Positions 2,728-62,197 of a stretch of DNA of 64,000 nt are shown here, in pieces. Where the stretch lies: the NCBI GenBank assembly GCA_026003175.1, contig BPGT01000002.1, positions 434,001 to 498,000 of the forward strand. The letters run 5' to 3'. Position 1 is the first letter of the stretch; each line of letters begins with the position of its first letter. The translations under genes and the position numbers were made by a program. Below the pieces are notes generated by a model, which was given only the letters and a program-made list of their open reading frames with translations, was not told the origin of the DNA and searched no databases. The DNA is from Armatimonadota bacterium (GTDB taxonomy: Bacteria; Armatimonadota; HRBIN16).

Positions 2728-3705
2728 GTGGCGGAGATTGTGTGCCTCGGCGAAGCGCTCATCGACATGGTCGCCCAACAGAAAGGGGTCACCATCGCGG
2801 AAGCAAAAGGCTTCTCGCCCGCTCCGGGTGGCGCACCGGCGAACGTCGCGGTGGGCGTGGCGAAACTGGGTGTACGCAGTGCGTTCCTGGGCAAAGTGGG
2901 GGCGGATCCGTTTGGATACCTGTTACGAGATACCCTCTACCAGTATGGGGTAGATGTAGGCGGGATGCGCTTTGATGAGAACGCACGCACTGCGCTGGCG
3001 TTCGTCTCGTTGACCAAGGAGGGCGTACCCGACTTCATCTTTTACCGCAATCCCAGTGCGGACATGCTTTACGAGCCGGGTGATGTGGACACGCACCGCC
3101 TGCGTCGGGCGAAGGTTTTTCACTTCGGCTCTATCTCTCTGCTGGACGAGCCGGTGCGCAGCGCGACACTGTTTGCCCTGCAGATTGCGCGAGAGAGTGG
3201 CGCACTGATTTCGTACGACCCCAATATGCGCCCCGCGCTCTGGCGCAGTGAGGAAGAGGGTAAACAGCAGATGGAAGCGGGTATGCGCTTTGCGGATGTG
3301 GTGAAGCTGAACGAGACCGAGCTGCAGTTCCTCACAGGCGTTCGTACGCCCGAGGTAGGCATCGCTCATCTTTTCACCCTGTTTCCGCAGCTGGTGCTGG
3401 TTGCGGTGACGTTGGGAGAAAAAGGTTGTTACTATGCGACGCCCCATCGAAGCGGTGCAGTTTCCGGAATACCTGTGGAGGTCGTGGAAACAGTTGGCTG
3501 TGGGGATGCGTTTGTGGCGGCGATGTTGGTGCAGCTGCGCAAGAGGGCAAAAGGACGCGAAGGGGTGCGCAACCTAAGCGACTCGGATCTGCAGCGTACG
3601 TTTCTGTACGCGAATGCTGCTGGAGCGATTACCGCCACTCGTCCCGGTGCCATCCCGGCTTTACCGACGGATGCGGAAGTGGCAGAGATGCTCCAGAAAG
3701 TGTAA
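2728..3705 (+). CDS. PfkB-family carbohydrate kinase (fructokinase-like)
   Basis: This is a cytosolic ribokinase-fold sugar kinase of 325 residues, which likely phosphorylates a hexose such as fructose with ATP. The first PfkB signature is visible near the N-terminus (GGAPANVAVGVAKLG), and the second near residue 255 (ETVGCGDAFVAAML). The usual GAGD anion hole reads GCGD here; the catalytic Asp is kept. The GTG start at 2728 is chosen because AAAGGAGGG lies 7 bases upstream and the family's N-terminus (EIVCLGEALIDM) begins right after it. It is the first gene of a rightward operon with two phosphofructokinase genes. The exact sugar cannot be read from sequence. Confidence 0.85.
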   Translation: MAEIVCLGEALIDMVAQQKGVTIAEAKGFSPAPGGAPANVAVGVAKLGVRSAFLGKVGADPFGYLLRDTLYQYGVDVGGMRFDENARTALAFVSLTKEGVPDFIFYRNPSADMLYEPGDVDTHRLRRAKVFHFGSISLLDEPVRSATLFALQIARESGALISYDPNMRPALWRSEEEGKQQMEAGMRFADVVKLNETELQFLTGVRTPEVGIAHLFTLFPQLVLVAVTLGEKGCYYATPHRSGAVSGIPVEVVETVGCGDAFVAAMLVQLRKRAKGREGVRNLSDSDLQRTFLYANAAGAITATRPGAIPALPTDAEVAEMLQKV

Positions 3706-4682: not shown

Positions 4683-5611
4683 TACTCTCCGTCACGCTCA
4701 ACCCCTCTGTAGACCGCCTCATCTACGTCAAGCAGCTGGTGCCTCACGATACCAACCGCATCCTGCGCATCGAGGAGGACGTTGGCGGTAAAGGCATCAA
4801 TGTGGCGCGGGTGCTAAAGCGGCTGGGAGTGCCTGTGGTTGCTACCGGCTTTCTGGGCGGCAGGACAGGACGATACGTGCAGCACGAGTTGAGCGAAACA
4901 GACAGGGTGGAGTGTCGATTTGTCTGGGTCAAAGGCGATACGCGCACCAACCTTGCCATTCAGGAAGAGGACGGCTCTCCGCCCACCGCGCTCAATGAGC
5001 GCGGGCCGCAGATTTCTGCGCAGGAACTCAATGCTTTACTGCAGATAGTGGAGAATCTTTCACGGAACGCACAGTTTGTCGCGCTGGGTGGTAGCCTGCC
5101 GCCGGGTGTACCAGCCGATATCTACGCCACGCTGGGCGAGATCGCCTCTCGTCATGGGGCAAAAGTGGTGCTGGACGCCGACGGTGAGCCCCTCTTGCAG
5201 GGATTGAAAGCATCTCCTTACCTGATCAAGCCCAACGAAAACGAGACCGAACGCCTGCTGGGCAGGGCGATAGATACTCTGGAGGACGCAGCAAGGGCGG
5301 CTCAGGAGTTACATAACAATGGTGTACCGATAGTGATTGTCTCCATTGGTGAGAAGGGAGCAGCGATAGCCAGCGCGGAGGGATGCTGGGTTGCGGTTCC
5401 GCCAGAGGTACGGACGGTCAGTACCATCGGCTCCGGCGATTCGATGATTGCTGGCGTCCTGAGCGTGCTGGTTCACGATGACACGGTAGAGGAGGCGATT
5501 CGCTGGGGCACCGCCGCAGGAGCCGCTACCGCCATGACCGACGGCTCGGACATCGGTACGGCAGAGCAGATACACGAGCTGCTTCCGCAGGTGGAGGTGA
5601 AGCGATGGTAG
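4679..5611 (+). CDS. 1-phosphofructokinase-family hexose kinase
   Basis: This is a 310-residue PfkB-family kinase of the FruK/LacC/PfkB (minor phosphofructokinase) subgroup. Both signatures are present: VGGKGINVARVLKRLG near residues 36-51 and the GSGDS catalytic motif near residue 250. The start MILSVTLNPSVDRLIYV is diagnostic for the subgroup. It overlaps the stop of pfkA, so the operon makes two phosphofructokinase-type enzymes from one mRNA. Substrates could be fructose 1-phosphate, tagatose 6-phosphate or fructose 6-phosphate. No PTS gene is nearby, so a role beside glycolysis, such as tagatose or fructose 6-phosphate use, is possible. Confidence 0.85.
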   Translation: MILSVTLNPSVDRLIYVKQLVPHDTNRILRIEEDVGGKGINVARVLKRLGVPVVATGFLGGRTGRYVQHELSETDRVECRFVWVKGDTRTNLAIQEEDGSPPTALNERGPQISAQELNALLQIVENLSRNAQFVALGGSLPPGVPADIYATLGEIASRHGAKVVLDADGEPLLQGLKASPYLIKPNENETERLLGRAIDTLEDAARAAQELHNNGVPIVIVSIGEKGAAIASAEGCWVAVPPEVRTVSTIGSGDSMIAGVLSVLVHDDTVEEAIRWGTAAGAATAMTDGSDIGTAEQIHELLPQVEVKRW

Positions 5612-6300
5612 GCGACGGGGGCAGGTGTCTGCGCAAGCTGAACGTCGCCATCGCGGCATGTGAGAAATGCCCGCGCCTGACGGAATATATCCGGCAGGTG
5701 GCACAGACCAAACGCCGTGCCTACCACGACTGGGAGTACTGGGGTAAGCCGGTGCCCAACTTCGGCGACCCCGAAGCGAAAATTCTGGTGGTCGGATTGG
5801 CTCCCGCCGCGCACGGTGGAAACCGTACGGGGCGCATTTTCACCGGCGATGAGAGCGGAAACTGGCTTTTCCGTGCGTTGTACGAGGTGGGTTTAGCCAG
5901 TCAGCCGGAGAGCGTTCACCGCGAGGATGGGCTGGAGCTGCAAAATACACTGATTACCGCTGTATGCCACTGCGCTCCGCCTGCCAACAAGCCCACTCGC
6001 GAGGAGTTGCAGAACTGCCAGCACTGGATGAAGGCAACTCTGCGTTGCGTCGGGGAGTGGAAGGTGATTGTGGCGCTGGGGAGAATAGCCTTCGAGTGGA
6101 CCCTCCGTGCTTTGAAAGAGATTGGGGTGGAGCATTCTGTCAAAGCATCGGCGTTCGCGCACGGGGCGGAGTTTGCCCTGCCCGATGGACGATGGATAGT
6201 GTGCAGTTATCATCCCAGCCAGCAGAATACCTTCACCGGCAAGCTCACGCGCGAGATGTTGCGCTCTGTATTCGAACGCGCTATGCAGCTGGCAGAATAG
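5605..6300 (+). CDS. Uracil-DNA glycosylase, family 5 (UdgB-like)
   Basis: This enzyme removes uracil and related deaminated bases from DNA as the first step of base excision repair. The 231-residue protein has the family motif A (GLAPAAHGGNRTGR), which lacks the Asp or Asn found in other UDG families. Motif B is HPSQQN near the C-terminus. Cysteines in CEKCPRL and in the CHCAPP segment are the expected [4Fe-4S] ligands of family 4/5 enzymes. These enzymes are common in thermophiles. The start overlaps the end of the upstream kinase by seven bases, so it appears to be the last gene of the sugar-kinase operon. Confidence 0.9.
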   Translation: MVGDGGRCLRKLNVAIAACEKCPRLTEYIRQVAQTKRRAYHDWEYWGKPVPNFGDPEAKILVVGLAPAAHGGNRTGRIFTGDESGNWLFRALYEVGLASQPESVHREDGLELQNTLITAVCHCAPPANKPTREELQNCQHWMKATLRCVGEWKVIVALGRIAFEWTLRALKEIGVEHSVKASAFAHGAEFALPDGRWIVCSYHPSQQNTFTGKLTREMLRSVFERAMQLAE

Positions 6301-6368
6301 TGTTCTGCAGTCTTGCATCCGCGCCAGCTGGAGTGAAAGGTTTTGTTCCTCAAGGCACGACAGAGGCT

Positions 6369-7052
6369 CTATTCCGGTTCGATTCCCAGATCGCGGAGCT
6401 TTGCTGCCAGACGCTCTGCCCGTGCTTCCGCTTCTTGTGCGCGATACTCTGCTGCAATTGCCCTCTGCTCTGCCTGCGTCCATCGCGCTTCCAGCTCTTC
6501 AGGGGTTACAAAAGGTAAACCATCGGGGCGAGTGAGAACCAGCTCGCCACTTTGCACACTGAAGCGGATGCCCAGGCGCGGGCTGACCCATCCCTCCATT
6601 TGCTCAATGGGTTGCAGCGTGCCATCTTCACCTCGTATCCAGCCGTCCAGCCGACCGGTATCGGGGTCGTACACATAGTACTCCTCCACCCCAAAACGCT
6701 GGTAGAAGAGGAACTTTTCTATCAGTTCGCTCAGGCGGTTACCTGGCGAGAGCACCTCAAAAACCACTTGCGGAGCGACACCATCCTCTTCCCACTGCTT
6801 GTAAGAGAGACGGTCGCCCTTTGGTCTGCCGAAAACGACCATCACATCGGGGGCGGTGCGTGTCTTATTGTCGCCTTCCACGGGGTACCATAACAGGTCA
6901 CCCGCGACGAAGACGTTGGGGTCGTCCTTGAACAGGCTGGCGATACCGGTGTAGATGGTCAATATCCAGCGGAACTGTTTGGTATTGTCAGCCATCGGCT
7001 TGCCGTCGCTTTCTGGATAGATCACCTCTTGCCTGGGTTGTACCGCGCTCAT
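6369..7052 (-). CDS. Uma2-family putative restriction endonuclease
   Basis: The 227-residue protein belongs to the Uma2 (DUF820) family with a PD-(D/E)XK-like nuclease core. The family pattern is clear: YPESDGKPMADN near the N-terminus, APDVMVVFG in the middle, QVVFEVLSPGN with the core Glu, and VEEYYVYDPDTG. The C-terminus is a coiled coil (EELEARWTQAEQRAIAAEY and on). The start at 7052 is preferred over the longer one at 7085 because GGGAGGGG lies seven bases upstream. The family's function is not established. A paralogue with the same layout lies at 40612-41322, so the genome probably has many copies. Confidence 0.85.
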   Translation of the reverse strand: MSAVQPRQEVIYPESDGKPMADNTKQFRWILTIYTGIASLFKDDPNVFVAGDLLWYPVEGDNKTRTAPDVMVVFGRPKGDRLSYKQWEEDGVAPQVVFEVLSPGNRLSELIEKFLFYQRFGVEEYYVYDPDTGRLDGWIRGEDGTLQPIEQMEGWVSPRLGIRFSVQSGELVLTRPDGLPFVTPEELEARWTQAEQRAIAAEYRAQEAEARAERLAAKLRDLGIEPE

Positions 7053-47757: not shown

Positions 47758-50244
47758 GTTACGAGCCTACCTATAAGGGATTGAAACAGTCATTGAAATT
47801 CACGAACATCGGAAGCCGGTACGTTACGAGCCTACCTATAAGGGATTGAAACCACCCCTTCGTGGGGAGAGAGCAACCAATGCGACCTTCGTTACGAGCC
47901 TACCTATAAGGGATTGAAACGCATACGGCTTCTACCGAAGCAGCCTCTACGACGCAGGTTACGAGCCTACCTATAAGGGATTGAAACCACAGTTCCAGAT
48001 GCTACTGCGGGAACATGCGGATAGTTACGAGCCTACCTATAAGGGATTGAAACGGTCCAGGCAAATTGTATACGCCATCCGGTCTGCAGGTTACGAGCCT
48101 ACCTATAAGGGATTGAAACCTCAGATTCTCCTGCTCCCGGATTCTCCTGCTCTTAGTTACGAGCCTACCTATAAGGGATTGAAACTGGTGGTCGGTACGG
48201 TGCTGGCGACACTGCCAGTCACGTTACGAGCCTACCTATAAGGGATTGAAACGCTGGGGTAGCGAAGTGTATATCGCCGATGCACCGCGTTACGAGCCTA
48301 CCTATAAGGGATTGAAACGTGAGACGCGCTGGTAATGCGAACCTCTACAACCTCGTTACGAGCCTACCTATAAGGGATTGAAACGGAGACCGCCCATACG
48401 GTGAAGTATGGTCATTGATAGTTACGAGCCTACCTATAAGGGATTGAAACATCCCTGGCAGTTGGAGGAACTCCCTCATGGTCATCGTTACGAGCCTACC
48501 TATAAGGGATTGAAACATACCATCAAAGCTTGCATCTTTGACGGAATCAGCAGTTACGAGCCTACCTATAAGGGATTGAAACCAGTACTCAGGTCTCATC
48601 TTTTGCCCTCCGTATAAAGTTACGAGCCTACCTATAAGGGATTGAAACTTGCGCATTGTGTACTTCGACCGCTTCCAGCAACGGGTTACGAGCCTACCTA
48701 TAAGGGATTGAAACTTCGATGTCCTGTTCCGTGACGCTAAGCCCCTTGTCGGTTACGAGCCTACCTATAAGGGATTGAAACTGTTGGTATCGCCTCCATC
48801 CCATGCTACGGTCAGGGTTACGAGCCTACCTATAAGGGATTGAAACATGTGTGTGAGAGTGCTTAGCCGTTCCTCCAGCCACGTTACGAGCCTACCTATA
48901 AGGGATTGAAACGTCAGAAGCCAGTTCCATGCGTCCCCACCCACGCGCAAGTTACGAGCCTACCTATAAGGGATTGAAACGCAGGGAGTCGGGTACGCGG
49001 GTGGAGTAGAACTCGGCGTTACGAGCCTACCTATAAGGGATTGAAACGGTGGGAGCAGGGCGGAGCGAAAGGTTCGTGCGGACGTTACGAGCCTACCTAT
49101 AAGGGATTGAAACGAAGAATAATTTAAAAACATATTTCTAGCAAACACAGTTACGAGCCTACCTATAAGGGATTGAAACCGAACTCCTCGTCCGGCTCTT
49201 CCAAATCGGGCTCCTCGTTACGAGCCTACCTATAAGGGATTGAAACGCAAATGGTGCAGATAGCGGTCATTGGTTGTGGCGAAGTTACGAGCCTACCTAT
49301 AAGGGATTGAAACCGACCGGCTCCACAAAGGGATTGAGTCTGGTAGCGTCGTTACGAGCCTACCTATAAAGGATTGAAACGGAAGATGATGTGTTCGGTA
49401 TCCTCACTGAATTGACGGTTACGAGCCTACCTATAAGGGATTGAAACGCGCGAGAATCTGCTTCAAGTGCCAGTTCGGAGAAGAGTTACGAGCCTACCTA
49501 TAAGGGATTGAAACGACGTGGAATTTCTCACTGATGATGAGTTGATAGAAGTTACGAGCCTACCTATAAGGGATTGAAACGACGACTACCTGCTCCAGTA
49601 TGGGCTGTTCCGGTTCGTTACGAGCCTACCTATAAGGGATTGAAACCATGATTACCAGCGCGTCTTTACTGGGGACAGGGATTGTTACGAGCCTACCTAT
49701 AAGGGATTGAAACCCAGACCGGTCACCAGCGTCCGCACCTGCTTCGGAAGTTACGAGCCTACCTATAAGGGATTGAAACGTCTGCTCCAGAAAAGCAGAC
49801 AGGGGCGGGACAATGATAGGTTACGAGCCTACCTATAAGGGATTGAAACGCTGCGAGTTCGCGCTCTCCAGTGCTGCCAGCCCGTTACGAGCCTACCTAT
49901 AAGGGATTGAAACGCAGCCCGACCGTCTCGTGGGTCGGCAGCGTGCCGGTTACGAGCCTACCTATAAGGGATTGAAACGTTTGCCGTTTTCGTAGGTAAG
50001 CATCTTCTCACCTCCGGTTACGAGCCTACCTATAAGGGATTGAAACTAACCCCAGAAGCTTCCCATGCCAAATCACCTGAGGGTTACGAGCCTACCTATA
50101 AGGGATTGAAACTAACCCCAGAAGCTTCCCATGCCAAATCACCTGAGGGTTACGAGCCTACCTATAAGGGATTGAAACTAACCCCAGAAGCTTCCCATGC
50201 CAAATCACCTGAGGGTTACGAGCCTACCTATAAGGGATTGAAAC
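47758..50244 (+). CRISPR. CRISPR array, 38 repeats of 30 bp, 37 spacers
   Basis: The repeat begins GTTACGAGCCTACC and ends TATAAGGGATTGAAAC (30 bases). Thirty-seven of the 38 copies appear identical; the copy at 49351 has TATAAAGG. Spacers are about 35-40 bases. The ATTGAAAC end gives the usual 8-base crRNA tag and, with the promoter, shows rightward transcription. The last three spacers (50047, 50113, 50179) are identical. The repeat has no strong hairpin. A type III-B operon lies 1.4 kb downstream, but no cas1, cas2 or cas6 is in the window, so processing and adaptation must come from elsewhere. Confidence 0.99.
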
Positions 50245-50926: not shown

Positions 50927-50956
50927 GTTACAAGCCCGCCTGTAAGGGATGGGAAC
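50927..50956 (+). repeat. Isolated degenerate copy of the array repeat
   Basis: Thirty bases starting GTTACAAGCCCGCC and ending GGGATGGGAAC match the array repeat at 24 of 30 positions in the same orientation. It is about 680 bases downstream of the last array repeat, just after the candidate MITE. Confidence 0.7.
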
Positions 50957-51300
50957 GATGTATCGGGGCTGGGTCACTGGCTCCGATTTTTTGTTTCTGG
51001 TGAACCGGGATGTGAGGTGGAGGCTGTGCGGTAAGGTGGAGAAGTGAATGCGCCGCGTCACGGCTCGCCAGGACGCGCAGAGGAAAACCCTCATCCCCCT
51101 GCCCCGTCTCCCGGCGGGAGATGGAGAGCAAAAGGACAGTTCGTCTCGACGTCTGTGCGTATGCGCTCACGGACGGTGGCACACGCAGACAGCCCGCGTA
51201 GAGCCTCGCGTCCCCTGCAACACCTCCCGCACCGCAACTTTTCGCCACTTGTAGTGTCTGTATAGATGACACGATGCCGGGCAAAAGGAAGGTGCTCCCT

Positions 51301-51477
51301 ATGGCAAATGACCACTCTGGCGGTGCGTGCTCGTCCTGTCTGGGGTGTCTGGGCTGTCTGGTGTTGCTGGCGATACTGGTGCCGGCGATACCCGCCCTGC
51401 TGGTCGGGGGGCTGGTGTTTCTGTTTGTGCTCGGCATCCTGTCCGCCATCTGGAACCAGATGTTTAGCACTCGGTAA
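51301..51477 (+). CDS. Small Cys-rich single-pass membrane protein
   Basis: The 58-residue protein starts MANDHSGGACSSCLGCLGCL, with four Cys at spacings of three, and continues into a hydrophobic stretch (VLLAILVPAIPALLVGGLVF) and a short polar tail. AAGGAAGGTG lies upstream of the ATG at 51301; a start at 51274 is possible. The Cys could be a lipid- or metal-binding site. It lies between the array and the cmr genes on the same strand. Type III systems often have membrane accessory proteins, but a link is not shown. Confidence 0.55.
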   Translation: MANDHSGGACSSCLGCLGCLVLLAILVPAIPALLVGGLVFLFVLGILSAIWNQMFSTR

Positions 51478-51554
51478 CCACACATTTTTTCTCAAATCTG
51501 CGTGGGAATGCAGGAAACCGTTGTGCTGTGTCAAATCGACAAACAACATCTTGT

Positions 51555-51593
51555 GCTGCCGCCGTTCAGAGCGCGTGGCAGTCACCTCTTGAT
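51555..51593 (+). other. fliO-matching, spacer-sized segment beside a solitary repeat
   Basis: Thirty-nine bases match 61871-61909, inside the fliO gene, in the same plus-strand orientation. Bases 51555-51583 are identical, then mismatches occur only at 51584 and 51587. fliO is on the minus strand, so a rightward transcript here is antisense to fliO mRNA, over codons for IKWGLPRALNGGS. It ends one base before the 37-base repeat. No repeat is seen on its other side. Confidence 0.75.
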
Positions 51594-51594
51594 C

Positions 51595-51631
51595 GTTGCA
51601 TCCGTCCTAACGGACGGGTGAGGATTGAAAC
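51595..51631 (+). repeat. Solitary 37-nt CRISPR-like repeat in the cmr1 leader
   Basis: It starts GTTGCATCCGTCC and ends GGTGAGGATTGAAAC. The inner hairpin is CCGTCC (51602-51607), loop TAAC, GGACGG (51612-51617). Length, hairpin and the ATTGAAAC tag are typical of repeats processed by Cas6. It differs from the array repeat except for the last ten bases (GGATTGAAAC). The cmr1 ribosome site GGAGG follows at 51633. Confidence 0.75.
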
Positions 51632-51643
51632 CGGAGGAAGTCG

Positions 51644-52951
51644 ATGGCGCGTCCTGTGCCCAAAACGGAGGCTCCCGAATGGAAGGAGCCTGCTGCACCT
51701 GACAGCCTGACGCTGCATCTGCGCCTGATCACACCGCTGTTTGGTGGCGGCTACGAGGCGCGCGAGGTAGACCCTGTGTGTATCATCCGCCCGGCGGCTG
51801 TTCGCGGACATCTGCGCTTCTGGTGGCGTGCGCTGTACGGAGGTCAGTACGCCAGCGCGAAAGAGCTCTTTGAGGCAGAGGCGGCGATATGGGGCGCCGC
51901 AGCCACCGAGCACAAAGATTGGGCAGGCAAGGTGGGGTTGAGGGTAACCCTTATTCAAAAAGGGTGCTCTCAACCGTGTGCTTGCTTTGAATGGGATGAA
52001 CAGCGAAGGCGTTACAGGTCTATTCCTCGTTTCCGGCAGGGTTATCCACCGTATGCATTGTACCCGTTTCAGGGGGAGCTGAGTGACAAGGGTAGAACCA
52101 TCAAGCAGTCTCCAGCTACCGCTTACGAAGGGGTAGAGTTTGTGCTCATTCTGACTTTTCCTGCAGAGATTCGAGAAGAGGTGCTCTCAGCAGTTACGGC
52201 ATGGGTTCGATACGGTGGTATCGGCGCACGCACGCGACGAGGATGCGGCTCACTGGCGGTTGTTCAAACAGATATGACTCTCCGTATTGCTTCGTTCGCT
52301 GACTTCCATATGCCGAGAAATGACAGAATAGCGTTGTTACCAGGAAGCCAATATGTGCTCGGTGCACCGTGCAAGTCCGCAATAGAGGCTTGGCAACAGG
52401 CGGTGCAGGTCTACCAGACCTTTCGACAGGGACATGGTTTTGCACGAAGACCTCCTCGCGAAGGCAATCGCCCGGGGCGTTCCTTCTACCCAGAGCCCGA
52501 TAGCATTCGCCGAATGACAGGCAGATACGCTGTGGAGCATCGCCCGGAGCATCCTGTTCAGAAGGGTTTCCCTCGTGCCGACCTCGGCTTGCCTATTGTG
52601 TTCCAATTCAAGGACGATGGCGACCCACCCAACGCTGTTCTGCATAGCGCGAAGGAAAGGCATCTCAGGATGGCGTCGCCGGTTATTACCAAGCCTCTCG
52701 CTACTCAAGATGGACTTTATCGTCCGCTGGTGATGGTATTGAACGCGCCCCATGCGTGGCAGCAGGATGGCCTGGTGCTGGAAGTGGAGGGCTTCAACAA
52801 GGCTCTTCCGATTGGTGAGGAACTGGTAAACCTCTCCACAGCCGAGTTGAAGCTGATCAAGCCGCTGGCAGGCAAACCGATTCGAGACGCTCTGTTGCAG
52901 TTTGTCAGCAAACAGTGGGGCAATGCCCCGATTCAAGGGTGGAAGCCATGA
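51644..52951 (+). CDS. cmr1: Type III-B CRISPR RAMP protein Cmr1
   Basis: The 435-residue subunit sits at the crRNA 3' end of the Cmr RNA-targeting complex. RAMP features are visible: LRLITPLFGGGYEARE near the N-terminus, IRPAAVRGHLRFWWRALYGG near residues 48-67, and the Gly-rich loop GGIGARTRRGCGSL near residue 190. A second RAMP-like half follows. The ATG follows GGAGGAAG directly after a solitary CRISPR-like repeat. Its stop overlaps cmr2 (ATGA). It is first in a tight operon cmr1-2-3-4-5-6-csx1. Confidence 0.93.
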   Translation: MARPVPKTEAPEWKEPAAPDSLTLHLRLITPLFGGGYEAREVDPVCIIRPAAVRGHLRFWWRALYGGQYASAKELFEAEAAIWGAAATEHKDWAGKVGLRVTLIQKGCSQPCACFEWDEQRRRYRSIPRFRQGYPPYALYPFQGELSDKGRTIKQSPATAYEGVEFVLILTFPAEIREEVLSAVTAWVRYGGIGARTRRGCGSLAVVQTDMTLRIASFADFHMPRNDRIALLPGSQYVLGAPCKSAIEAWQQAVQVYQTFRQGHGFARRPPREGNRPGRSFYPEPDSIRRMTGRYAVEHRPEHPVQKGFPRADLGLPIVFQFKDDGDPPNAVLHSAKERHLRMASPVITKPLATQDGLYRPLVMVLNAPHAWQQDGLVLEVEGFNKALPIGEELVNLSTAELKLIKPLAGKPIRDALLQFVSKQWGNAPIQGWKP

Positions 52952-54612
52952 CCTACCTCCTCTCCATCTCCATCGGTCCCGTGCAGGAGTTCATCGCGGC
53001 AGCGAGGCGCACTGCCGACCTGCGCGCGGGTTCGCAACTGCTTCAGCAGCTCGCCGGGCACATCGCGGCGCAGATTACTCAACAGGGGGGCACGCTCATC
53101 TTCCCGGCCAGCGCGGACGTGCCCGGACCCAACAAGGTGGTGGCGCAAATCGATACCGACCAGCCGTCCGAGATGGTTAGCATGCTCAAAGAGAGTGCAA
53201 CAGAGTGGCTGTGGCAACAGTGGCAGCGGGTGCGTGAGCGATTGAAGGCGGAGGGCGTGCTGGTAAACGACCAGCTGGCGCAGGAGCAGATTGCTGCCTT
53301 TCTGGAGTTCTACGCGGCGTGGGTTCCCCTCCATGGGGATTACTCCGCGGCACGCCAGAGGGTGGAACTGCTGCTGGCAGGGCGCAAAGTACTGCGCGAT
53401 TTCGCCCAGCCGTCTTCTGTGCATGGCAACCCCAAAAGCCCGCTCGACCCCTCACGCGACTGCGTTATCATATTGAACCGAAAAGGCTCCTGGTATCAGG
53501 TGCCCGACAACGCCCAGCAGTCGCCTTCGCTACGCTTCAAAAAGACCGAGTTTCTAGACGCCATCTCCCTGCTGAAGCGAGGGCAGGAGGCGCGAGATGT
53601 CCCCTCCACCTCCCTCTTAGCGGCAAGGTCGGTTCTGCCGATTGCCGAGAAGCGCGTGCCCGATGCGGTGGAGACACTACGTGCTGCGGTGCGCGATACG
53701 CACGGGCTGGTGGACATGGGTGACCTGATGTTCCCCGCCCGGCTGCAGGAGGAGGCTTCCGCCCATCCGGTGCTGCAGCAACAGCGAGAACAGATCGAAG
53801 AGGCGCGACGGAAAATCCTCAGGAGCGCAGGAGTGTCCGAGTGTCCACCCTACTACGCTGTGCTGGTAGCGGATGGCGACCGCATGGGCAGGCTGATCGG
53901 CATGCAGAACACGGTGGACAAACACCGTGCCCTCTCGCAGGCGATGGCGGGGGTAGCCCGGCAGATGAGCGAAGCCATCCAGCAGCGCGATGGTTACTGC
54001 GTGTACGCGGGAGGTGACGATGTGCTGGCTCTGTTGCCGGTAAACCGCGCTCTGGAGTGCGCCGTGCAACTGGCTCACCTCTTCCGCAAAGCAATAAGTT
54101 TCTTCGTCACCAGCGAGGATGCCGGAGGCACGCTCTCTGTGGGGGTGGCGATAGCGCATCACCTGGAGTCCCTGCAGAGAACATTACAGTGGGCGCGCGA
54201 GGCGGAAAAGCTTGCGAAGAGGCAGCGCAACGCGCTGGGGCTGGCTCTACACCTGCGCGGTGGCGCACCGCTGGAGGTGGCTACCTCATGGCAAAAAGAC
54301 CCTTATCTGGAGAGCTGGATGGTGTGGATATCGGCGTTCCGCCAGGGGCTTTCTCATGGCTTTCCCTACGAGCTGCTCCATCTGGCGCGCGAGGCAGAGG
54401 GCTGCCATCTGAATGCAGAAACCCTTCGTGGGGAGGCACGACGCATTTTGAACCGTAAGCAGGGCAGGGAGGCGAAGGGGGGCATGGAGCCTTTTCGTCA
54501 GCAGATGGAAGCGGAGCTGGAGAAAATCCACAACGTCCACGACCTGGAAGCGCTGGCGCACCGTCTGATCATCGCGCGCTTCCTCTCACGCTACCCGGAG
54601 GTGGACGTATGA
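52948..54612 (+). CDS. cmr2: Cas10/Cmr2, cyclic-oligoadenylate synthase subunit without HD domain
   Basis: The 554-residue large subunit of the Cmr complex is expected to make cyclic oligoadenylate when target RNA is bound. The N-terminus is SIGPVQEFIAAARRTADLRAG, the Cmr2 start. The first Palm domain has LVADGDRMGRLIG near residue 310 and the active GGDD is at residues 355-358 (VYAGGDDVLAL). A Cys ligand region for zinc is not clear. The N-terminal HD nuclease domain of longer Cas10 proteins is missing, so target DNA cutting is unlikely. Starts and stops overlap neighbours by four bases. Confidence 0.93.
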   Translation: MTYLLSISIGPVQEFIAAARRTADLRAGSQLLQQLAGHIAAQITQQGGTLIFPASADVPGPNKVVAQIDTDQPSEMVSMLKESATEWLWQQWQRVRERLKAEGVLVNDQLAQEQIAAFLEFYAAWVPLHGDYSAARQRVELLLAGRKVLRDFAQPSSVHGNPKSPLDPSRDCVIILNRKGSWYQVPDNAQQSPSLRFKKTEFLDAISLLKRGQEARDVPSTSLLAARSVLPIAEKRVPDAVETLRAAVRDTHGLVDMGDLMFPARLQEEASAHPVLQQQREQIEEARRKILRSAGVSECPPYYAVLVADGDRMGRLIGMQNTVDKHRALSQAMAGVARQMSEAIQQRDGYCVYAGGDDVLALLPVNRALECAVQLAHLFRKAISFFVTSEDAGGTLSVGVAIAHHLESLQRTLQWAREAEKLAKRQRNALGLALHLRGGAPLEVATSWQKDPYLESWMVWISAFRQGLSHGFPYELLHLAREAEGCHLNAETLRGEARRILNRKQGREAKGGMEPFRQQMEAELEKIHNVHDLEALAHRLIIARFLSRYPEVDV

Positions 54613-55754
54613 ACGAACAGGTCGTACGTATCCGTGCCATAGACCCCCTGCTCTTCCGGGATGGACGCCCGTTCGGGGCGGATATCGGTTCACTGCTGGC
54701 GCAGACGTTACCCCTCCCCTACCCATCCACGCTCGCGGGCTTCGTGCGCACCTTCGCCGGCAACCGCTGGGGAGTGGACTGGGCAGACGAGGCGTCTGTG
54801 CAGCGCGTGCTGAATATCCACGTTCGGGGTCCGTTGCTGATGCGTAATGACAAACACGTCTTTCGCGCCCCGGCGGATGCGGTCGTCTGGGAGCAGGGGG
54901 AGAAGAAGCAGGTCGGCTTGACCTCCCTCCGCCCCCAGCCTGTGCAGCCTGGCGAAGGCAGCAACCTGCCGCCGGGTATCCTGCCTCTGCTGCCACAGAA
55001 GTATATCGAAGGCAAACCGTCGGAAGGCTATGACCTGTGGACATGGGATACCCTTTCTCAGTGGCTTGCCGACCCAACGGGCGATGCGACTTCCTCTCCC
55101 GAGAAGATAGGGTGGCTGGAAGTGGAAGAGCGCGTGCATGTGGCGATTGAGGATGACAAGGGTACCAGCAAGGAGGAGCTCTTGTTCACCGTACAGTTTC
55201 TCTCCTTTGAACGCTATCGCTGGGAAGGGCAAGCGCAGCGCGAGCAGTGGGCTTTGCTCGTGCGAGTGACTGCGGACGAGCCTGTGTCTCTGCAGGGGGT
55301 TGGCTTGCTGGGCGGCGAGAAGCGGTTGGCTGCAGTGGAAGCGGTGGATAACTCCCGCTGGCTTGGCTGTCCACCGGAACTAGGGCAGGCTCTGCGCGGC
55401 GCAAGCAGGATAAGGCTGTTTCTGGCTACCCCGGCTATCTTCAGCGGCGGATGGAAACCCGGCTGGCTGGATGCAAACCTCACAGGTTCTCCACCTTTTG
55501 CACCAAACCTGAAACTACAACTGGTGTCCGCCGCCGTGAGGAGGCATGAGGCGGTGAGCGGGTGGGACTATCGCGAAGACCATCGGTGCCCGAAGGCGGT
55601 GCGCTGGCTGGCTCCTGCAGGCTCAGTGTACTTCTTCCAGGTGCTGGAAGGTGAACCAGAGTTGCTTGCCACAGAGGCGTGGCTCCAATCCGTCTGTGAT
55701 GACCTGCAAGACCAGCGCGACGGCTACGGGCTGGCACTCTGGGGAATTTGGTAA
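54609..55754 (+). CDS. cmr3: Type III-B CRISPR protein Cmr3
   Basis: The 381-residue RAMP-type subunit binds the 5' tag of the crRNA next to Cmr2. The N-terminus has the family pattern VVRIRAIDPLLFRDGRPFG, then LPYPSTLAGFVRTFAGNRWG. A Gly-rich loop is in the C-terminal third (GVGLLGGEKRLAAVE). A four-base overlap joins it to cmr2; cmr4 follows after 15 bases with its own GGAGGAAAGGG site. Length is normal. Confidence 0.92.
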   Translation: MNEQVVRIRAIDPLLFRDGRPFGADIGSLLAQTLPLPYPSTLAGFVRTFAGNRWGVDWADEASVQRVLNIHVRGPLLMRNDKHVFRAPADAVVWEQGEKKQVGLTSLRPQPVQPGEGSNLPPGILPLLPQKYIEGKPSEGYDLWTWDTLSQWLADPTGDATSSPEKIGWLEVEERVHVAIEDDKGTSKEELLFTVQFLSFERYRWEGQAQREQWALLVRVTADEPVSLQGVGLLGGEKRLAAVEAVDNSRWLGCPPELGQALRGASRIRLFLATPAIFSGGWKPGWLDANLTGSPPFAPNLKLQLVSAAVRRHEAVSGWDYREDHRCPKAVRWLAPAGSVYFFQVLEGEPELLATEAWLQSVCDDLQDQRDGYGLALWGIW

Positions 55755-55769
55755 TTGGGAGGAAAGGGA

Positions 55770-56621
55770 ATGAGTGACCGAGTGAAAGCGATTTACCTGC
55801 ACGCCCTCACGCCGGTGCATTCCGGCACAGGGCAGGCGGTGGCGGTGGTAGACCTGCCCATCGCCCGCGAGAAGGCGACCGGCTGGCCCATCATCCCTGC
55901 CAGCAGCCTCAAAGGGGTGTTGCGCGATGCCCTCAGCAACGACAACAACAAGGGATGGATAGACCTCGCCTTCGGGAAGGACGTGCGCAGCGAGGAGCAG
56001 GGCGAAGCGGGTGTGTTCTGCTTCACCGACCAGCGCATCCTGTGCCTGCCGGTGCGCAGCTATTTCGGCACTTTCGCCTACGCCACCTGTCCACTGGTGC
56101 TCCAGCGGCTGGTACGAGACATGAGAGCGTTCGGAGTGCAACCGCTGTTCGATGCGGTGCCTGCAGGCGCGGAAGGCATGAACGCACTGGTGACCAAAGG
56201 TTCCACTCTGGCGAAGGGGGGCAAGCTCTATCTGGAGGACCTGGACCTCTCTGCGAAGGAGGACGAACAAACCCAGAAGATAGCCAACGCGCTGGCTGGC
56301 AAGCTCTTTACGGAGAATCCGCGCTCCTTTACCGAGCGGTTTGTCATCGTCTCCGATGAGGTGTTCAACTTCCTGTGCGAAACGGCGATGGAGGTGGCAG
56401 CACGCATCCGCCTGAAAGACGAGACGAAGACGGTGGAAACCGGCGCACTGTGGTACGAGGAGGCGGTGCCCGCGGAGAGCCTGTTCAGCGGCGCGGTGTT
56501 GATAGCCGACCACTACCGTCGGGAGCCGACCGATCTATGGAACAAGTTTCAGCCGAGCCTGATACAGCTTGGAGGCAACTCCACCGTCGGGCGAGGCTTG
56601 TGTCGGGTGGTGATCGCATGA
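55770..56621 (+). CDS. cmr4: Type III-B CRISPR backbone RNase subunit Cmr4
   Basis: The 283-residue subunit forms the repeated backbone along the crRNA and cuts target RNA every six bases. The catalytic Asp is D28 in TGQAVAVVDLPIARE. SSLKGVLRDAL (helix after the thumb region) and the C-terminal GGNSTVGRGLCRV Gly-rich loop are typical. The ATG at 55770 is used because GGAGGAAAGG precedes it. It overlaps cmr5 by four bases. Confidence 0.94.
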   Translation: MSDRVKAIYLHALTPVHSGTGQAVAVVDLPIAREKATGWPIIPASSLKGVLRDALSNDNNKGWIDLAFGKDVRSEEQGEAGVFCFTDQRILCLPVRSYFGTFAYATCPLVLQRLVRDMRAFGVQPLFDAVPAGAEGMNALVTKGSTLAKGGKLYLEDLDLSAKEDEQTQKIANALAGKLFTENPRSFTERFVIVSDEVFNFLCETAMEVAARIRLKDETKTVETGALWYEEAVPAESLFSGAVLIADHYRREPTDLWNKFQPSLIQLGGNSTVGRGLCRVVIA

Positions 56622-57019
56622 AAACGCGAGCGCAACAGGATATGGAGCTGGCGGCAAAGCTGGTGCAGGAAGTGGCAGACCTCGACAAGGAGACTTACAA
56701 GGAGACTCAACAGATTTATGGAAGTTTGTGTCACTCCTTCCCCGTGATGGTACGCACCTGCGGGCTGTGCCAGGCGATAGCCTTTTCTCAAGCGAAAGCG
56801 GGCGAGGGGAAGGATGCGCGCGAGAAGGCGCATGAGCTGCTGCTGAAGCACGTGCGGAAGGTGCTGGGTGTGCAGGGTGACCTGTTGCAGGTGCTCCGCG
56901 AAGCCTCCGCCAGCGACTATATGCTGTACACGCGACGGGTGCTTTCGGCATGGGTGTATTTTAAACGCTTCGCCGAGTCCATTCTCAAAGTATCCAGCGG
57001 TCAACAGGGGAGTAAGTGA
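56618..57019 (+). CDS. cmr5: Type III-B CRISPR small subunit Cmr5
   Basis: The 133-residue, mostly helical protein begins MKTRAQQDMELAAKLVQEV and matches Cmr5 in size and place. Cmr5 subunits bind along the target RNA opposite the Cmr4 backbone. Four-base overlap (ATGA) with cmr4; its stop shares one base with the cmr6 start (TGATG). Nothing unusual is seen. Confidence 0.9.
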   Translation: MKTRAQQDMELAAKLVQEVADLDKETYKETQQIYGSLCHSFPVMVRTCGLCQAIAFSQAKAGEGKDAREKAHELLLKHVRKVLGVQGDLLQVLREASASDYMLYTRRVLSAWVYFKRFAESILKVSSGQQGSK

Positions 57020-58097
57020 TGGAAGTCAAGGCAATCCGAAAGCCTCTGGAAAGTCTGCAAGGCGGGCAACACGTAGGGCTGATGCTCCATCGCTACCTCG
57101 CCCAACATGACGATACCCATGAGGGCGCGAAGCAGCTGTACGAGCAGGCTCAGCAGACACCTGTTCCCGAGGTGTGTACCGTCTGGCTTTCCATCGATGG
57201 CAGCAGGCGCTACAACAGTTGCCTCACATGCGCCATTTTGTCGCCACTGCCGTTTCGCCCATCGCCGTCGGGCTGGGCAACGAAAGCGTGCTGGAGGTGG
57301 GGCTGGCGATTCATCACACCTACGGTGTGCCCATCATCCCCGGTTCGGCTCTGAAAGGCTTGTGCCGACGCGGCGCGCTGCGCCTGAGACAGGAAGGCAA
57401 ACTATCCGAAGACGCCTTCCGGGTGCTCTTTGGCTACTCCGAACAAAGCGGCGAGGCGTCCGCTGGATACATCACCTTCTGGGACGCCTGGTACGACCCC
57501 GATTCAGTGGAAGGTACACCCTTCCATCGCGATGTGGTGACGGTGCATCATCCTGATTATTACGGCGGCGGGAAAGCGTTTCCCACTGACTTCGACGACC
57601 CCAACCCCGTGCCGTTTCTGGTGGTCAAGCCGGGGGCGCGCTTCCTGTTCGCCCTGCAGGCACCCGATGAGCAGTGGGGAGCGTTTGCCCAGAAGCTGCT
57701 GGAGTGGTGCTTGCAGAATCTGGGGGTGGGTGCGAAGACGAACGCGGGATACGGGTTCCTCGTAGCGGGCAAGCAGCCAGAAAAATCTCCTTCTGGTGGC
57801 ACAACCGCTGTCGCTGAAAAGGCTCGGTCGACGCAGCCCGCGACCAACCGCGAACTCTGGCAGGGTGTGACGGTGGTGTACAACCCCTCCCAGCGCAACC
57901 TGCAGGTGCAGAGACAGAACCAGGGCAGGACAGAAGGCGCATCCGCGGACGAGGCGAGAACAAAATTGCTGCTGGCAGCATTGCCCGAATCCGCTCGCAA
58001 CCAGCTCACTCAGGGCAAACGCCGACTGCTGGCAGACGTGGAGGTAGAGGTCAGCGGCAATCGCAAGTTCATCGTCAAGATTACCCCAAAGGAGTGA
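57019..58097 (+). pseudogene. cmr6: Cmr6 RAMP protein, frame broken at a GTGTGT run; C-terminal extension
   Basis: The N-terminal frame (MEVKAIRKPLESLQGGQHVG...TPVPEV) and the main frame (YRLAFHRWQQALQQLPHMRH...) join if two bases are removed from GTGTGT at 57172-57177. The span is a multiple of three plus two. The main frame has the RAMP features PIIPGSALKGLCRRGAL and LGVGAKTNAGYGFLV. About 105 further residues follow, with a variable linker and an OB-like stretch (VTVVYNPSQRNLQVQ ... KRRLLADVEVEVSGNRKF). A start within the main frame (GTG 57174) could make a 307-residue form. Real loss would remove the 3' cap of the complex. Confidence 0.85.
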
Positions 58098-58102
58098 AGG
58101 GG

Positions 58103-59317
58103 ATGAAGCTGCTCACCTTCCTAGGCACGACCCCCTATTGGAAGACCGACTATGTCTGGAGCGATAAGCGGTGCGAAACCGAATTCATCGCGGAGGCGAT
58201 AGCGAGCTGGTTACACCTACAGGATATCGTTGTGTTTCTTACTGAGAAAGCAGAGCAGAGCGGGAACTGGAAACAGCTGCAAGAACGACTGCAAGGACGG
58301 GCACGTGCCGTGCGTATCCCTGACGGCAGGACTGAGCAAGAGATATGGGAGATATTTGAAAAAGTGGTTGGGCAGGTTCATCAGCACGATGTGGTGGTTC
58401 TGGATGTGACTCATGCGTTTCGCTCCCTGCCGATGCTTTTGACCGTTGCTGCAGCTTTCCTCCGTGCGGTGCGCGAGGTGCGGGTAGAGCATATCTTCTA
58501 TGCACCCAGCGAACGAGAGCAACGAGAATCTACGGTGATGGATCTCATCTTGCTGCTGCACTGGATGGACTGGATGGAAGCGGTTCGACGCTTTAGAGAA
58601 ACGGGTGACGCGCGATGGATTGGAGACACACTGACCCAAACCCATGACACTCTACGCGCTACTGCGACGGGCGAACCCAGAAGCCTGAAGAAGGCAGGTA
58701 AGGAATTGGGAAATCTGGCTCAAGCCCTTCATCTGGCGCGTCCTATAGAGGTCGCTCAAGTTGCTACGAGACTAAGAGCTATCTTGCCCGAGGCGTCGCA
58801 AGAGGTGACGAAGTGGGTGAAGCCCTTTAGCCTGCTTGTGGACAAGGTCACTCAACAAACTTCCCAGCTTTCCTACGAGCAACCACAGACATTGAATCGC
58901 AACAATCTGCAAACGCAGTTAGACCTCATCCACCAGCTGTTGCAATACGGTTTAACCATGCAAGCGGTCCAGGCGGCGCGCGAGTGGCTGATCAACTGGG
59001 CAATCTGGTACAAAGCAGGCAGAGGCTCTCTGCAAAAGGATGATTGGCTATCTGACAAATCGCGTAATAGCGCTGAAAACGACCTGAACAGTGCCTTTCG
59101 TCCAGATGCAAACAAAGCGGTTGTGCCAGAGTGGCTCCGTGAACCCGAGCTGCACAAGGTGCTACAACAGCTGTGGCCTGGCTTGTGCAACCTGCGCAAC
59201 GACATTGCGCACTGCGGGATGCGCTTACAACCCCTCTGCGCAAAGGACTTACAGGGTCAGAGCGAGGAGTACCTCCGCATGTTGGAAGAAGTGATGAACC
59301 TTAGTAATCCAGAGTGA
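58103..59317 (+). CDS. csx1: Csx1/TM1812-type CARF-HEPN ribonuclease
   Basis: The 404-residue effector is expected to bind cyclic oligoadenylate from Cmr2 through an N-terminal CARF domain and then cut RNA. CARF signals are LLTFLGTTPYWKTDYVW at the start and DVTHAFRSLPMLLTVAAAFL near residue 110. The C-terminal HEPN motif is RNDIAH, with R365 and H370 as catalytic residues. The ATG 58103 is preferred because AAAGGAG is eight bases upstream; GTG 58094 overlapping the cmr6 stop is possible. It is the only visible signalling effector in the operon. Confidence 0.9.
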   Translation: MKLLTFLGTTPYWKTDYVWSDKRCETEFIAEAIASWLHLQDIVVFLTEKAEQSGNWKQLQERLQGRARAVRIPDGRTEQEIWEIFEKVVGQVHQHDVVVLDVTHAFRSLPMLLTVAAAFLRAVREVRVEHIFYAPSEREQRESTVMDLILLLHWMDWMEAVRRFRETGDARWIGDTLTQTHDTLRATATGEPRSLKKAGKELGNLAQALHLARPIEVAQVATRLRAILPEASQEVTKWVKPFSLLVDKVTQQTSQLSYEQPQTLNRNNLQTQLDLIHQLLQYGLTMQAVQAAREWLINWAIWYKAGRGSLQKDDWLSDKSRNSAENDLNSAFRPDANKAVVPEWLREPELHKVLQQLWPGLCNLRNDIAHCGMRLQPLCAKDLQGQSEEYLRMLEEVMNLSNPE

Positions 59318-61534: not shown

Positions 61535-62197
61535 TTACAGAGACAGCCTTTCGTGAGCCTGTCGCAGGCGTTGCCGAAAGTCACGGATCGCCTGCCGGGC
61601 ATCCTCTGCCTCATCGCCCAGCGTGGGGTCCGGCGTAAAGGGCTTGGACCGCGCAAGCATCTTATCGAAGGTAGATGCGGTGTCCGGTTGCTCGGTCAGG
61701 TCCATGAGCAGGTTCACCTGCTGTGCGGAGGAGCCTATCAGCAGGGTTCTGCCTCGCACGGTGATGAGATGCACCGCGCCTGCCCCCAGAAAGCGCGTGT
61801 CCAGCACGGTGATGGTTCCTTCGTTCTGAGGGGGTGTAAGGCGGGTGAGCCACTGCGCAACCTGTCCCTTGCTGCCGCCGTTCAGAGCGCGTGGCAGTCC
61901 CCACTTGATAAGAGCCAGCGCGACCATCAGCCCAATTAGCCACCGCCATGCTTGGCTTGCGGGAGAGCCGACCGGCTCAGGCAGGGTTTCGCGCCGGAGG
62001 GCATCCCAGCCCTCACGAGAGCTCTGCACTGATCTGTTATCCTGCAGTGCCGCCGGTGTCGTGGGCACGGGCGGCGAGGGGCGATGCAGACTAGGAGCGC
62101 CGGAGGCTGGCGGCGAGAAGGCGGACGTGGGCGGTGAAGCCGTTGCCTGCATCGCCGCCAGCGCGCAGAGCATGAACACGAAAGCAGCCTTCCTCAT
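61535..62197 (-). CDS. fliO: Flagellar biosynthesis protein FliO
   Basis: The 220-residue protein has a signal peptide-like start (AAFVFMLCALAAMQATA), a Pro-rich linker and one membrane helix (WRWLIGLMVALALIKWGLP). A cytoplasmic FliO domain follows (GTITVLDTRFLGAGAVHLIT and LLIGSSAQQVNLL). FliO helps assemble FliP in the flagellar export gate. It is the last gene of the leftward run fliM-fliN/Y-fliO, with ATGA overlap to fliN/Y. The 39 bases just after the helix codons match a segment upstream of cmr1. fliP is not in the next bases. Confidence 0.85.
   Translation of the reverse strand: MRKAAFVFMLCALAAMQATASPPTSAFSPPASGAPSLHRPSPPVPTTPAALQDNRSVQSSREGWDALRRETLPEPVGSPASQAWRWLIGLMVALALIKWGLPRALNGGSKGQVAQWLTRLTPPQNEGTITVLDTRFLGAGAVHLITVRGRTLLIGSSAQQVNLLMDLTEQPDTASTFDKMLARSKPFTPDPTLGDEAEDARQAIRDFRQRLRQAHERLSL

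What the first reader, a model, noticed from the sequence alone, without database searches (positions are those of the whole stretch)
51595..51651. CRISPR repeat placed directly before the cmr1 ribosome site
The repeat ends at 51631 and GGAGG begins at 51633. Cas6-type cutting eight bases from the repeat end would leave cmr1 mRNA beginning with ATTGAAAC, just before the ribosome site. This would make the operon mRNA a Cas6 substrate and let Cas6 or free crRNA tags control cmr expression. The Cmr complex recognises this tag, so it could also bind its own mRNA.
Basis: partly seen in the sequence, partly recalled or inferred. Interest (0 to 1): 0.65.

Follow-up and report, generated by a model that had tools for sequence, protein, structure and literature searches.

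The report
Stray CRISPR repeat before cmr1 gene
A single copy of a CRISPR repeat, joined to a 40-letter piece of the bacterium's own flagellar gene, has been inserted just in front of the start of an immune-effector operon; it looks like a one-off relic of a different CRISPR system, though it could still affect how much of the effector is made.

Summary
In detail: one intact CRISPR repeat (51595-51631) ends two bases before the GGAGG of cmr1. The interpretation needs changing. (1) The repeat is not of the type in the adjacent array (30 nt, GTTACGAGCC..). It is a 37-nt type I-C repeat: in three same-genus genomes this family sits beside I-C cas genes. Its textbook nuclease is Cas5c, which cuts at the hairpin base and leaves 11 nt (AGGATTGAAAC), not Cas6 leaving 8. 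(2) The unit is larger than reported: the 40 nt before the repeat (51554-51593) match the genome's own fliO gene at 38/40, antisense to its mRNA. (3) The closest relative has the same leader without the insert, and none of 18 other cmr1-like leaders has the repeat, so it is lineage-specific. (4) There is no upstream repeat, so the fliO piece cannot become an ordinary tagged crRNA. (5) The one Cas6 found belongs to a type I-B locus with the 30-nt repeat. I read it as a relic of an aberrant I-C insertion that now acts at most as a leader structure. Folding predicts a masked ribosome site that cutting would free, only marginally beyond chance. One independent parallel (I-C repeat before cas7c) keeps regulation open.

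The parts
51595..51631 (+). single 37-nt type I-C CRISPR repeat; hairpin CATCCGTCC-TAAC-GGACGGGTG, then AGGATTGAAAC
   Evidence: I-C assignment
51554..51593 (+). 40-nt segment 38/40 identical to the strand of fliO that is antisense to its mRNA; reaches the left edge of the insertion
51594..51594 (+). single C between the fliO-derived segment and the repeat (A in fliO)
51585..51589 (+). CCTCT, predicted to pair with the Shine-Dalgarno GGAGG; its middle T (51587) is A in fliO
51633..51637 (+). Shine-Dalgarno GGAGG of cmr1, also present in the empty-site relative G006
51520..51553 (+). ancestral leader sequence, homologous to the G006 leader; not an upstream repeat
51644..52951 (+). cmr1 (RAMP), first cas gene of the III-B operon that runs to the TIGR02221 protein (51644-59317)
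61870..61909 (+). matching stretch inside fliO
61535..62197 (-). fliO-like gene (TIGR03500, 21 bits, below the curated cut-off of 55)
51301..51477 (+). 58-aa hydrophobic ORF between array and cmr1; counterparts in G003, G006, G007
   Evidence: read; no NCBIfam hit
47758..50244 (+). 38-copy array of the other, 30-nt repeat GTTACGAGCCTACCTATAAGGGATTGAAAC

Best explanation
It is an ectopic spacer-repeat unit: a 40-nt piece of the lineage's own fliO, one base, and one intact type I-C repeat, inserted in the cmr1 leader in place of about 18 nt so that the repeat abuts a pre-existing ribosome site. I take it to be the product of an aberrant type I-C adaptation or repair event in this lineage, whose I-C system is now apparently gone. 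It is presumably transcribed with cmr1 and acts at most in cis, as a stable leader hairpin that lowers access to the ribosome site. Shown: sequence, repeat type by association, self-match, empty site, absence of an upstream repeat. Inferred: the adaptation/repair origin, loss of I-C, transcription, and the effect on translation.
For: The repeat family flanks I-C cas genes in G003, G007 and G008 and in two Thermus plasmids (37-nt repeats GTTGCACCGG..GTGAGGATTGAAAC beside cas5c-cas8c-cas7c). G006 has the same leader (86% over 269 nt, 94% over 128 nt) with TTACTGACACTCCACTGTCT before GGAGG instead of the unit. None of 18 other cmr1-like leaders in 17 genomes has it. fliO match: own genome 38/40, the nine others 34, 34, 31, 31, 31, 31, 30, 30 and 24 of 40; CAGAGC is shared only with the own fliO, and CCCCA is in all nine alignable fliO copies, so the two differences arose in the leader copy. 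The only Cas1 found is in the I-B locus; the repeat has no second copy in the genome.
Against: The hairpin and the 11-nt end are fully intact, which an old relic need not keep. The fliO segment plus C (41 nt) is longer than all 49 spacers measured in 37-nt-repeat arrays of the genus (33-37 nt), so it is not an ordinary spacer. One other genome has an I-C repeat in the same position before an effector gene (cas7c). I-C effector genes were sought in only about 0.30 Mb of the 4.11-Mb genome.
Confidence: 0.6

Rival explanations
1. Nuclease-gated leader: the fliO-derived CCTCT masks the ribosome site in a stem that encloses the repeat hairpin; a CRISPR nuclease (Cas5c, or Cas6 if it accepts this repeat) cuts after the hairpin and frees the site, tying Cmr synthesis to crRNA processing.
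For: Predicted mean unpaired probability of GGAGG: intact 0.06-0.15; with both leader-specific changes set back to the fliO letters 0.23-0.33; after cutting 0.66-0.72. The leader folds better than shuffles (z -2.39, 5 of 200 as good). Independent parallel: a near-copy of the resident I-C repeat directly before the ribosome site of cas7c in G197.
Against: Masking is only marginal: 5.7% (37 C) and 6.3% (55 C) of 300 shuffled segments mask as well or better, and the relatives' leaders without the unit are already fairly closed (G006 0.22-0.32, G009 0.16-0.23). The cognate nuclease was not found; the unit is present in one genome only.
Confidence: 0.17
2. One reading: the genome's Cas6 cuts 8 nt from the repeat end and feeds back on cmr mRNA.
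For: One Cas6 exists (TIGR01877), and the last 10 nt (GGATTGAAAC) are shared with its presumed 30-nt repeat.
Against: The 5' part and hairpin differ from the 30-nt repeat; the repeat family belongs to I-C, which uses Cas5c; no conservation.
Confidence: 0.07
3. Guide RNA against the cell's own flagellar mRNA: the fliO-antisense segment is used by Cmr to silence fliO, like scaRNA or CreA.
For: Orientation is right: the + strand RNA would pair with fliO mRNA over 38/40 nt.
Against: No repeat upstream of the segment: 51520-51553 is ancestral leader, so no tag-bearing 5' end can be made by repeat cutting.
Confidence: 0.05
4. Solitary repeat acting as a decoy that titrates Cas5c/Cas7c or Cas6, like the viral Racr RNAs.
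For: Viral contigs carry repeat-like hairpins directly before ribosome sites: 14 of 80 pattern hits have an adjacent stem of 5 or more pairs against 91 of 1832 control windows; RacrIC1 is encoded in one bicistronic RNA with an acr gene (PMC10651486, passages read).
Against: It lies in a chromosomal cas operon, not in a virus, and no I-C system was found that it could inhibit.
Confidence: 0.06
5. Assembly error.
For: Present in one genome of ten.
Against: The unit is inside a 1.31-Mb contig of a 7-contig assembly, and the fliO copy differs at two positions.
Confidence: 0.03

Closest known systems
Ectopic repeats of CreTA (and scaRNA) (PMC9458426, passages read)
   Same: CRISPR repeat outside an array, next to sequence with a match in the own genome
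   Different: those have degenerate repeats, mostly one or two, the first one upstream of the guide (handle role recalled); here one non-degenerate repeat, none upstream
Racr solitary repeat units, incl. RacrIC1 (PMC10651486, passages read)
   Same: single repeat in an RNA next to a coding sequence, hairpin intact, I-C type
   Different: Racrs are viral or plasmid-borne inhibitors; this is in a chromosomal cas operon without a resident array of its repeat
Type I-C CRISPR repeat processed by Cas5c/Cas5d (PMC3890593, passages read)
   Same: hairpin followed by exactly 11 nt ending ATTGAAAC
   Different: single copy; no cognate array in the genome
CRISPR-derived regulatory elements near cas genes (Shmakov et al., NAR 2023; recalled, not held)
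   Same: repeat-derived element near cas genes
   Different: could not be compared; text not seen

Membership tests
Type I-C CRISPR repeat | repeat family found beside cas5c-cas8c-cas7c | tested here: met
   (G003 whole set; G007 and G008 partial stretches)
Type I-C CRISPR repeat | hairpin with 11-nt 3' end for cutting at the stem base | tested here: met
   rule from PMC3890593
Type I-C CRISPR repeat | resident I-C array or genes in the same genome | tested here: inconclusive
   no array; one Cas1, in the I-B locus; no I-C effector hits in about 0.30 Mb examined; cas5c not sought in the rest
Cas6 substrate (8-nt tag) | repeat matches that of the genome's Cas6 system | tested here: not met
   Cas6 heads an I-B operon with a 30-nt-repeat array; only the 3' ten bases agree
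Cas6 substrate (8-nt tag) | cleavage by the genome's Cas6 | not testable with these tools
   needs biochemistry
CreA/scaRNA-type guide | upstream (degenerate) repeat giving a 5' handle | tested here: not met
   upstream flank is ancestral leader
CreA/scaRNA-type guide | guide match to a gene of the own genome | tested here: met
Racr (anti-CRISPR RNA) | carried by a virus or plasmid | tested here: not met
   in the III-B operon of a 1.31-Mb contig
Regulatory element of cmr1 | conserved in cmr1 leaders of relatives | tested here: not met
   0 of 18 other leaders
Ordinary CRISPR array remnant (terminal spacer-repeat) | spacer of normal length | tested here: not met
   41 nt against 33-37 in 49 spacers

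The most novel reading that the evidence does not exclude
CRISPR effector genes can carry a repeat in front of their own ribosome site as a nuclease-gated switch. Here the type III-B operon of one bacterium carries a type I-C repeat whose neighbouring, self-derived fliO sequence has mutated to mask the ribosome site, so that repeat cutting (or pairing with fliO mRNA) would turn on Cmr synthesis. The I-C repeat before cas7c in G197 would be a second, independent case.
Probability: 0.1. Interest if true: 0.75.

Novelty: new variant of a known kind. Interest (0 to 1): 0.4.

Why it matters
If only a relic, it records a CRISPR adaptation or repair event that captured self DNA and landed outside an array, in an effector leader, with a close relative showing the empty site. 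If functional, it would link crRNA processing by one CRISPR type to synthesis of the effector of another, a natural counterpart of the CRISPR-nuclease RNA insulators used in engineering (recalled). The G197 parallel (I-C repeat before cas7c) makes the general question testable: do cas operons carry their own repeats as mRNA cutting sites?

Tried and rejected
Upstream degenerate repeat: looked for before 51554; the stretch aligns with the G006 leader, so rejected. Cas6-repeat pairing by co-occurrence: PF10040 Cas6 occurs in 5 of 10 genus genomes including all four with 37-nt arrays, which first suggested a cognate Cas6; set aside when the loci looked at (G001, G003, G008) proved to hold csm-like genes while 37-nt arrays flank I-C genes. 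Other genomes with exactly this repeat: none in genome contigs or viral contigs; with a free loop the family appears on 4 contigs, titled Chthonomonadia bacterium, Armatimonadetes bacterium (two) and uncultured bacterium. Phylum scan for ATTGAAAC, ribosome site, ATG: 42 of 291 genomes; by my rough estimate most are chance. Of the 55 places listed, 30 got a locus each, L129-L158, and were read: five in arrays, one (L134, G079) before cas7c with no hairpin and apparently the end of cas8c, one real parallel (L151, G197), our own (L158), the rest unrelated. Ten plasmid I-C loci (of 84 records matched): no isolated repeat copy in the nine where the script detected an array-like repeat (the one in L185 may not be a true CRISPR repeat). 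Six plasmid cmr1 loci fetched (of 16 records): an array was detected in two (L191, L196), no isolated copy; in the other four no array, so no test. Spacers of two 30-nt arrays (88) against about 0.30 Mb of the genome: no full self-match outside the arrays; two short matches, one of 17 nt to L180 and one of 15 nt between two spacers. Promoter scan: none. Literature: searches listed no paper whose title or abstract start describes a repeat directly before the ribosome site of a cas gene; subscription papers are mostly missing from that library. PMC10013973 was searched for autoregulation passages: nothing relevant.

Full report
OBSERVATION. The repeat GTTGCATCCGTCCTAACGGACGGGTGAGGATTGAAAC lies at 51595-51631, the GGAGG at 51633-51637 and the cmr1 ATG at 51644. 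The gene is a RAMP protein followed by Cmr2, Cmr3, a RAMP protein, Cmr5, another RAMP protein (I read these two as Cmr4 and Cmr6) and a TIGR02221 protein. The 28-nt core is found once in the 4,107,454-base genome with up to 3 mismatches. It is not the repeat of the adjacent array, which has 38 copies of the 30-nt GTTACGAGCCTACCTATAAGGGATTGAAAC; the two end in the same ten bases, GGATTGAAAC.

WHAT LIES BEFORE IT. The 40 nt at 51554-51593 match 61870-61909 at 38 of 40 positions in the same orientation (E 1.6e-11 against the genome). That place is inside a fliO-like gene read on the minus strand (weak TIGR03500 hit), so RNA made from the cmr1 leader is antisense to fliO mRNA. Best matches of the segment in fliO loci of the ten genus genomes: own 38; G006 and G001 34; G009, G003, G007 and G002 31; G004 and G008 30; G005 24, not properly alignable. 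CAGAGC occurs only in the own fliO and the leader copy. CCCCA is in all nine alignable fliO copies, while the leader has ACCTC around that place. So the segment was copied from this lineage's own fliO and then changed at two positions.

INSERTION. G006, the closest relative at this place (86% over 269 nt upstream, 94% over 128 nt from the ribosome site on), has the same small ORF, the same leader and the same ribosome site, but TTACTGACACTCCACTGTCT in place of the unit. The stretch 51520-51553 aligns with that leader, so there is no repeat upstream of the fliO segment. I compared 18 further cmr1-like loci from 17 genomes (two second pieces of the same genes left out; start codons of distant ones uncertain): none has the repeat in the leader. 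The unit is therefore specific to this lineage among the genomes seen.

REPEAT TYPE. The same repeat family, differing in few positions, mostly in the loop, forms arrays in G002, G003, G007 and G008. In G003, G007 and G008 cas genes similar to those of an I-C operon lie beside them (cas7c, cas4 and cas1 in all three; cas5c and cas8c seen in G003, the stretches of the others being partial). Two Thermus plasmids annotated as I-C have 37-nt repeats of the same form. In I-C, Cas5d (Cas5c) replaces Cas6 and cuts at the base of the hairpin, giving an 11-nt 5' handle (PMC3890593, passages read). Here exactly 11 nt, AGGATTGAAAC, follow the hairpin. G002 is an exception to tell: it has 37-nt arrays, but its one Cas1 hit lies by a 30-nt-type array, and no I-C protein was found in the 13 kb around one of them.

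NUCLEASES IN THIS GENOME. PF10040 finds no Cas6; TIGR01877 finds one, in a locus that I read as cas6, cas8b, cas7, cas5, cas3, cas4, cas1, cas2, a 52-copy 30-nt array and a Cas10/Csm1-like gene (cas6, cas7, cas5, cas4 and cas1 confirmed by NCBIfam). Its nearest solved relatives are Cas6 enzymes. PF01867 finds one Cas1, in the same locus. I-C effector genes were sought only in about 0.30 Mb (window, L120, L169-L180): none, apart from a cross-match of I-C Cas1 to the I-B Cas1. I cannot say that cas5c is absent from the rest.

LEADER STRUCTURE. The repeat folds alone as a 9-bp hairpin. In the leader, CCTCT (51585-51589) pairs with GGAGG (51633-51637) and TGATC with GATTG, enclosing the hairpin (z -2.39, 5 of 200 shuffles as good). 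Mean unpaired probability of GGAGG over six transcript choices and two temperatures is 0.06-0.15; with T51587 and A51584 set back to the fliO letters 0.23-0.33; with T51587 alone set back 0.23-0.80; with A51584 alone 0.07-0.13; for RNA starting at the Cas5c or Cas6 cut 0.66-0.72. Against this: 5.7% and 6.3% of 300 shuffled segments mask as well, and RNA starting at the repeat itself is already open (0.70-0.73), so masking depends on the fliO segment being in the transcript. The transcript start is unknown; the promoter scan found nothing, and a terminator-like site lies at 50962-50987.

PARALLELS. In 291 genomes of the phylum, ATTGAAAC followed by a ribosome site and ATG occurs in 42. Of 30 loci read, one besides ours has a lone repeat-like hairpin before a cas gene: in G197 a near-copy of the I-C repeat that stands at the end of that contig sits at the end of a 129-aa ORF and one base before the GGAGG of cas7c. 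Ten plasmid I-C loci showed no such copy (an array was detected in nine). L241 carries two I-C-like repeats, one before a ribosome site. This fits the solitary repeat units described as RNA anti-CRISPRs (PMC10651486, passages read).

READING. The simplest account is an aberrant I-C event in this lineage that placed a self-derived segment and one repeat in the cmr1 leader. The segment is too long for an ordinary spacer (41 against 33-37 nt in 49 spacers), which speaks against a plain leftover of an array and for an irregular integration or repair event; I cannot tell these apart. Functional ectopic repeats are described as degenerate (PMC9458426, passages read); this one is not. A regulatory role stays possible because of the predicted masking, the leader-specific change that strengthens it, and the G197 parallel; the missing conservation and the missing cognate nuclease weigh against it.

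Noticed in passing
L159 (G197:C70), about 3230-3290, minus strand: near-copy of a type I-C repeat placed directly before the ribosome site of cas7c, at the end of a 129-aa cas11-like ORF; an independent case of a repeat before an effector ribosome site
   Followed up: partly
51301-51477: 58-aa hydrophobic ORF with N-terminal cysteines between CRISPR array and cmr1, with counterparts in G003, G006 and G007; no NCBIfam hit
   Followed up: no
L162 (G006:C3), 4742-6573: cmr operon of the closest relative is broken: a cmr1 fragment of about 180 residues lies next to the TIGR02221-type gene and no cmr2-cmr6 was found in the stretch
   Followed up: no
50047-50214: last three spacers of the 30-nt array are identical copies; the C7 array (L120) also has a spacer present three times
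   Followed up: no
L195 (Allomeiothermus silvanus plasmid pMESIL01): I-C and III-B genes in one run: cas3, cas5c, cas8c, cas7c, cmr1, cas10, cmr3-cmr6, csx2, suggesting that Cmr can be served by Cas5c-cut crRNAs
   Followed up: no
L241, 533-588 and 4536-4573: viral contig with two I-C-like solitary repeats, one directly before a ribosome site of a small HTH-like gene
   Followed up: partly
50927-50956; also upstream of the small ORF in G003, G006 and G007: degenerate terminal repeats (30-nt type in the window and G006, 37-nt type in G003 and G007), read by eye, lie upstream of the small ORF, next to its ribosome site in the three relatives
   Followed up: no
G000, outside the window: 86 of 176 30-nt repeat copies lie on the reverse strand at places not listed, so at least one more array exists
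   Followed up: no
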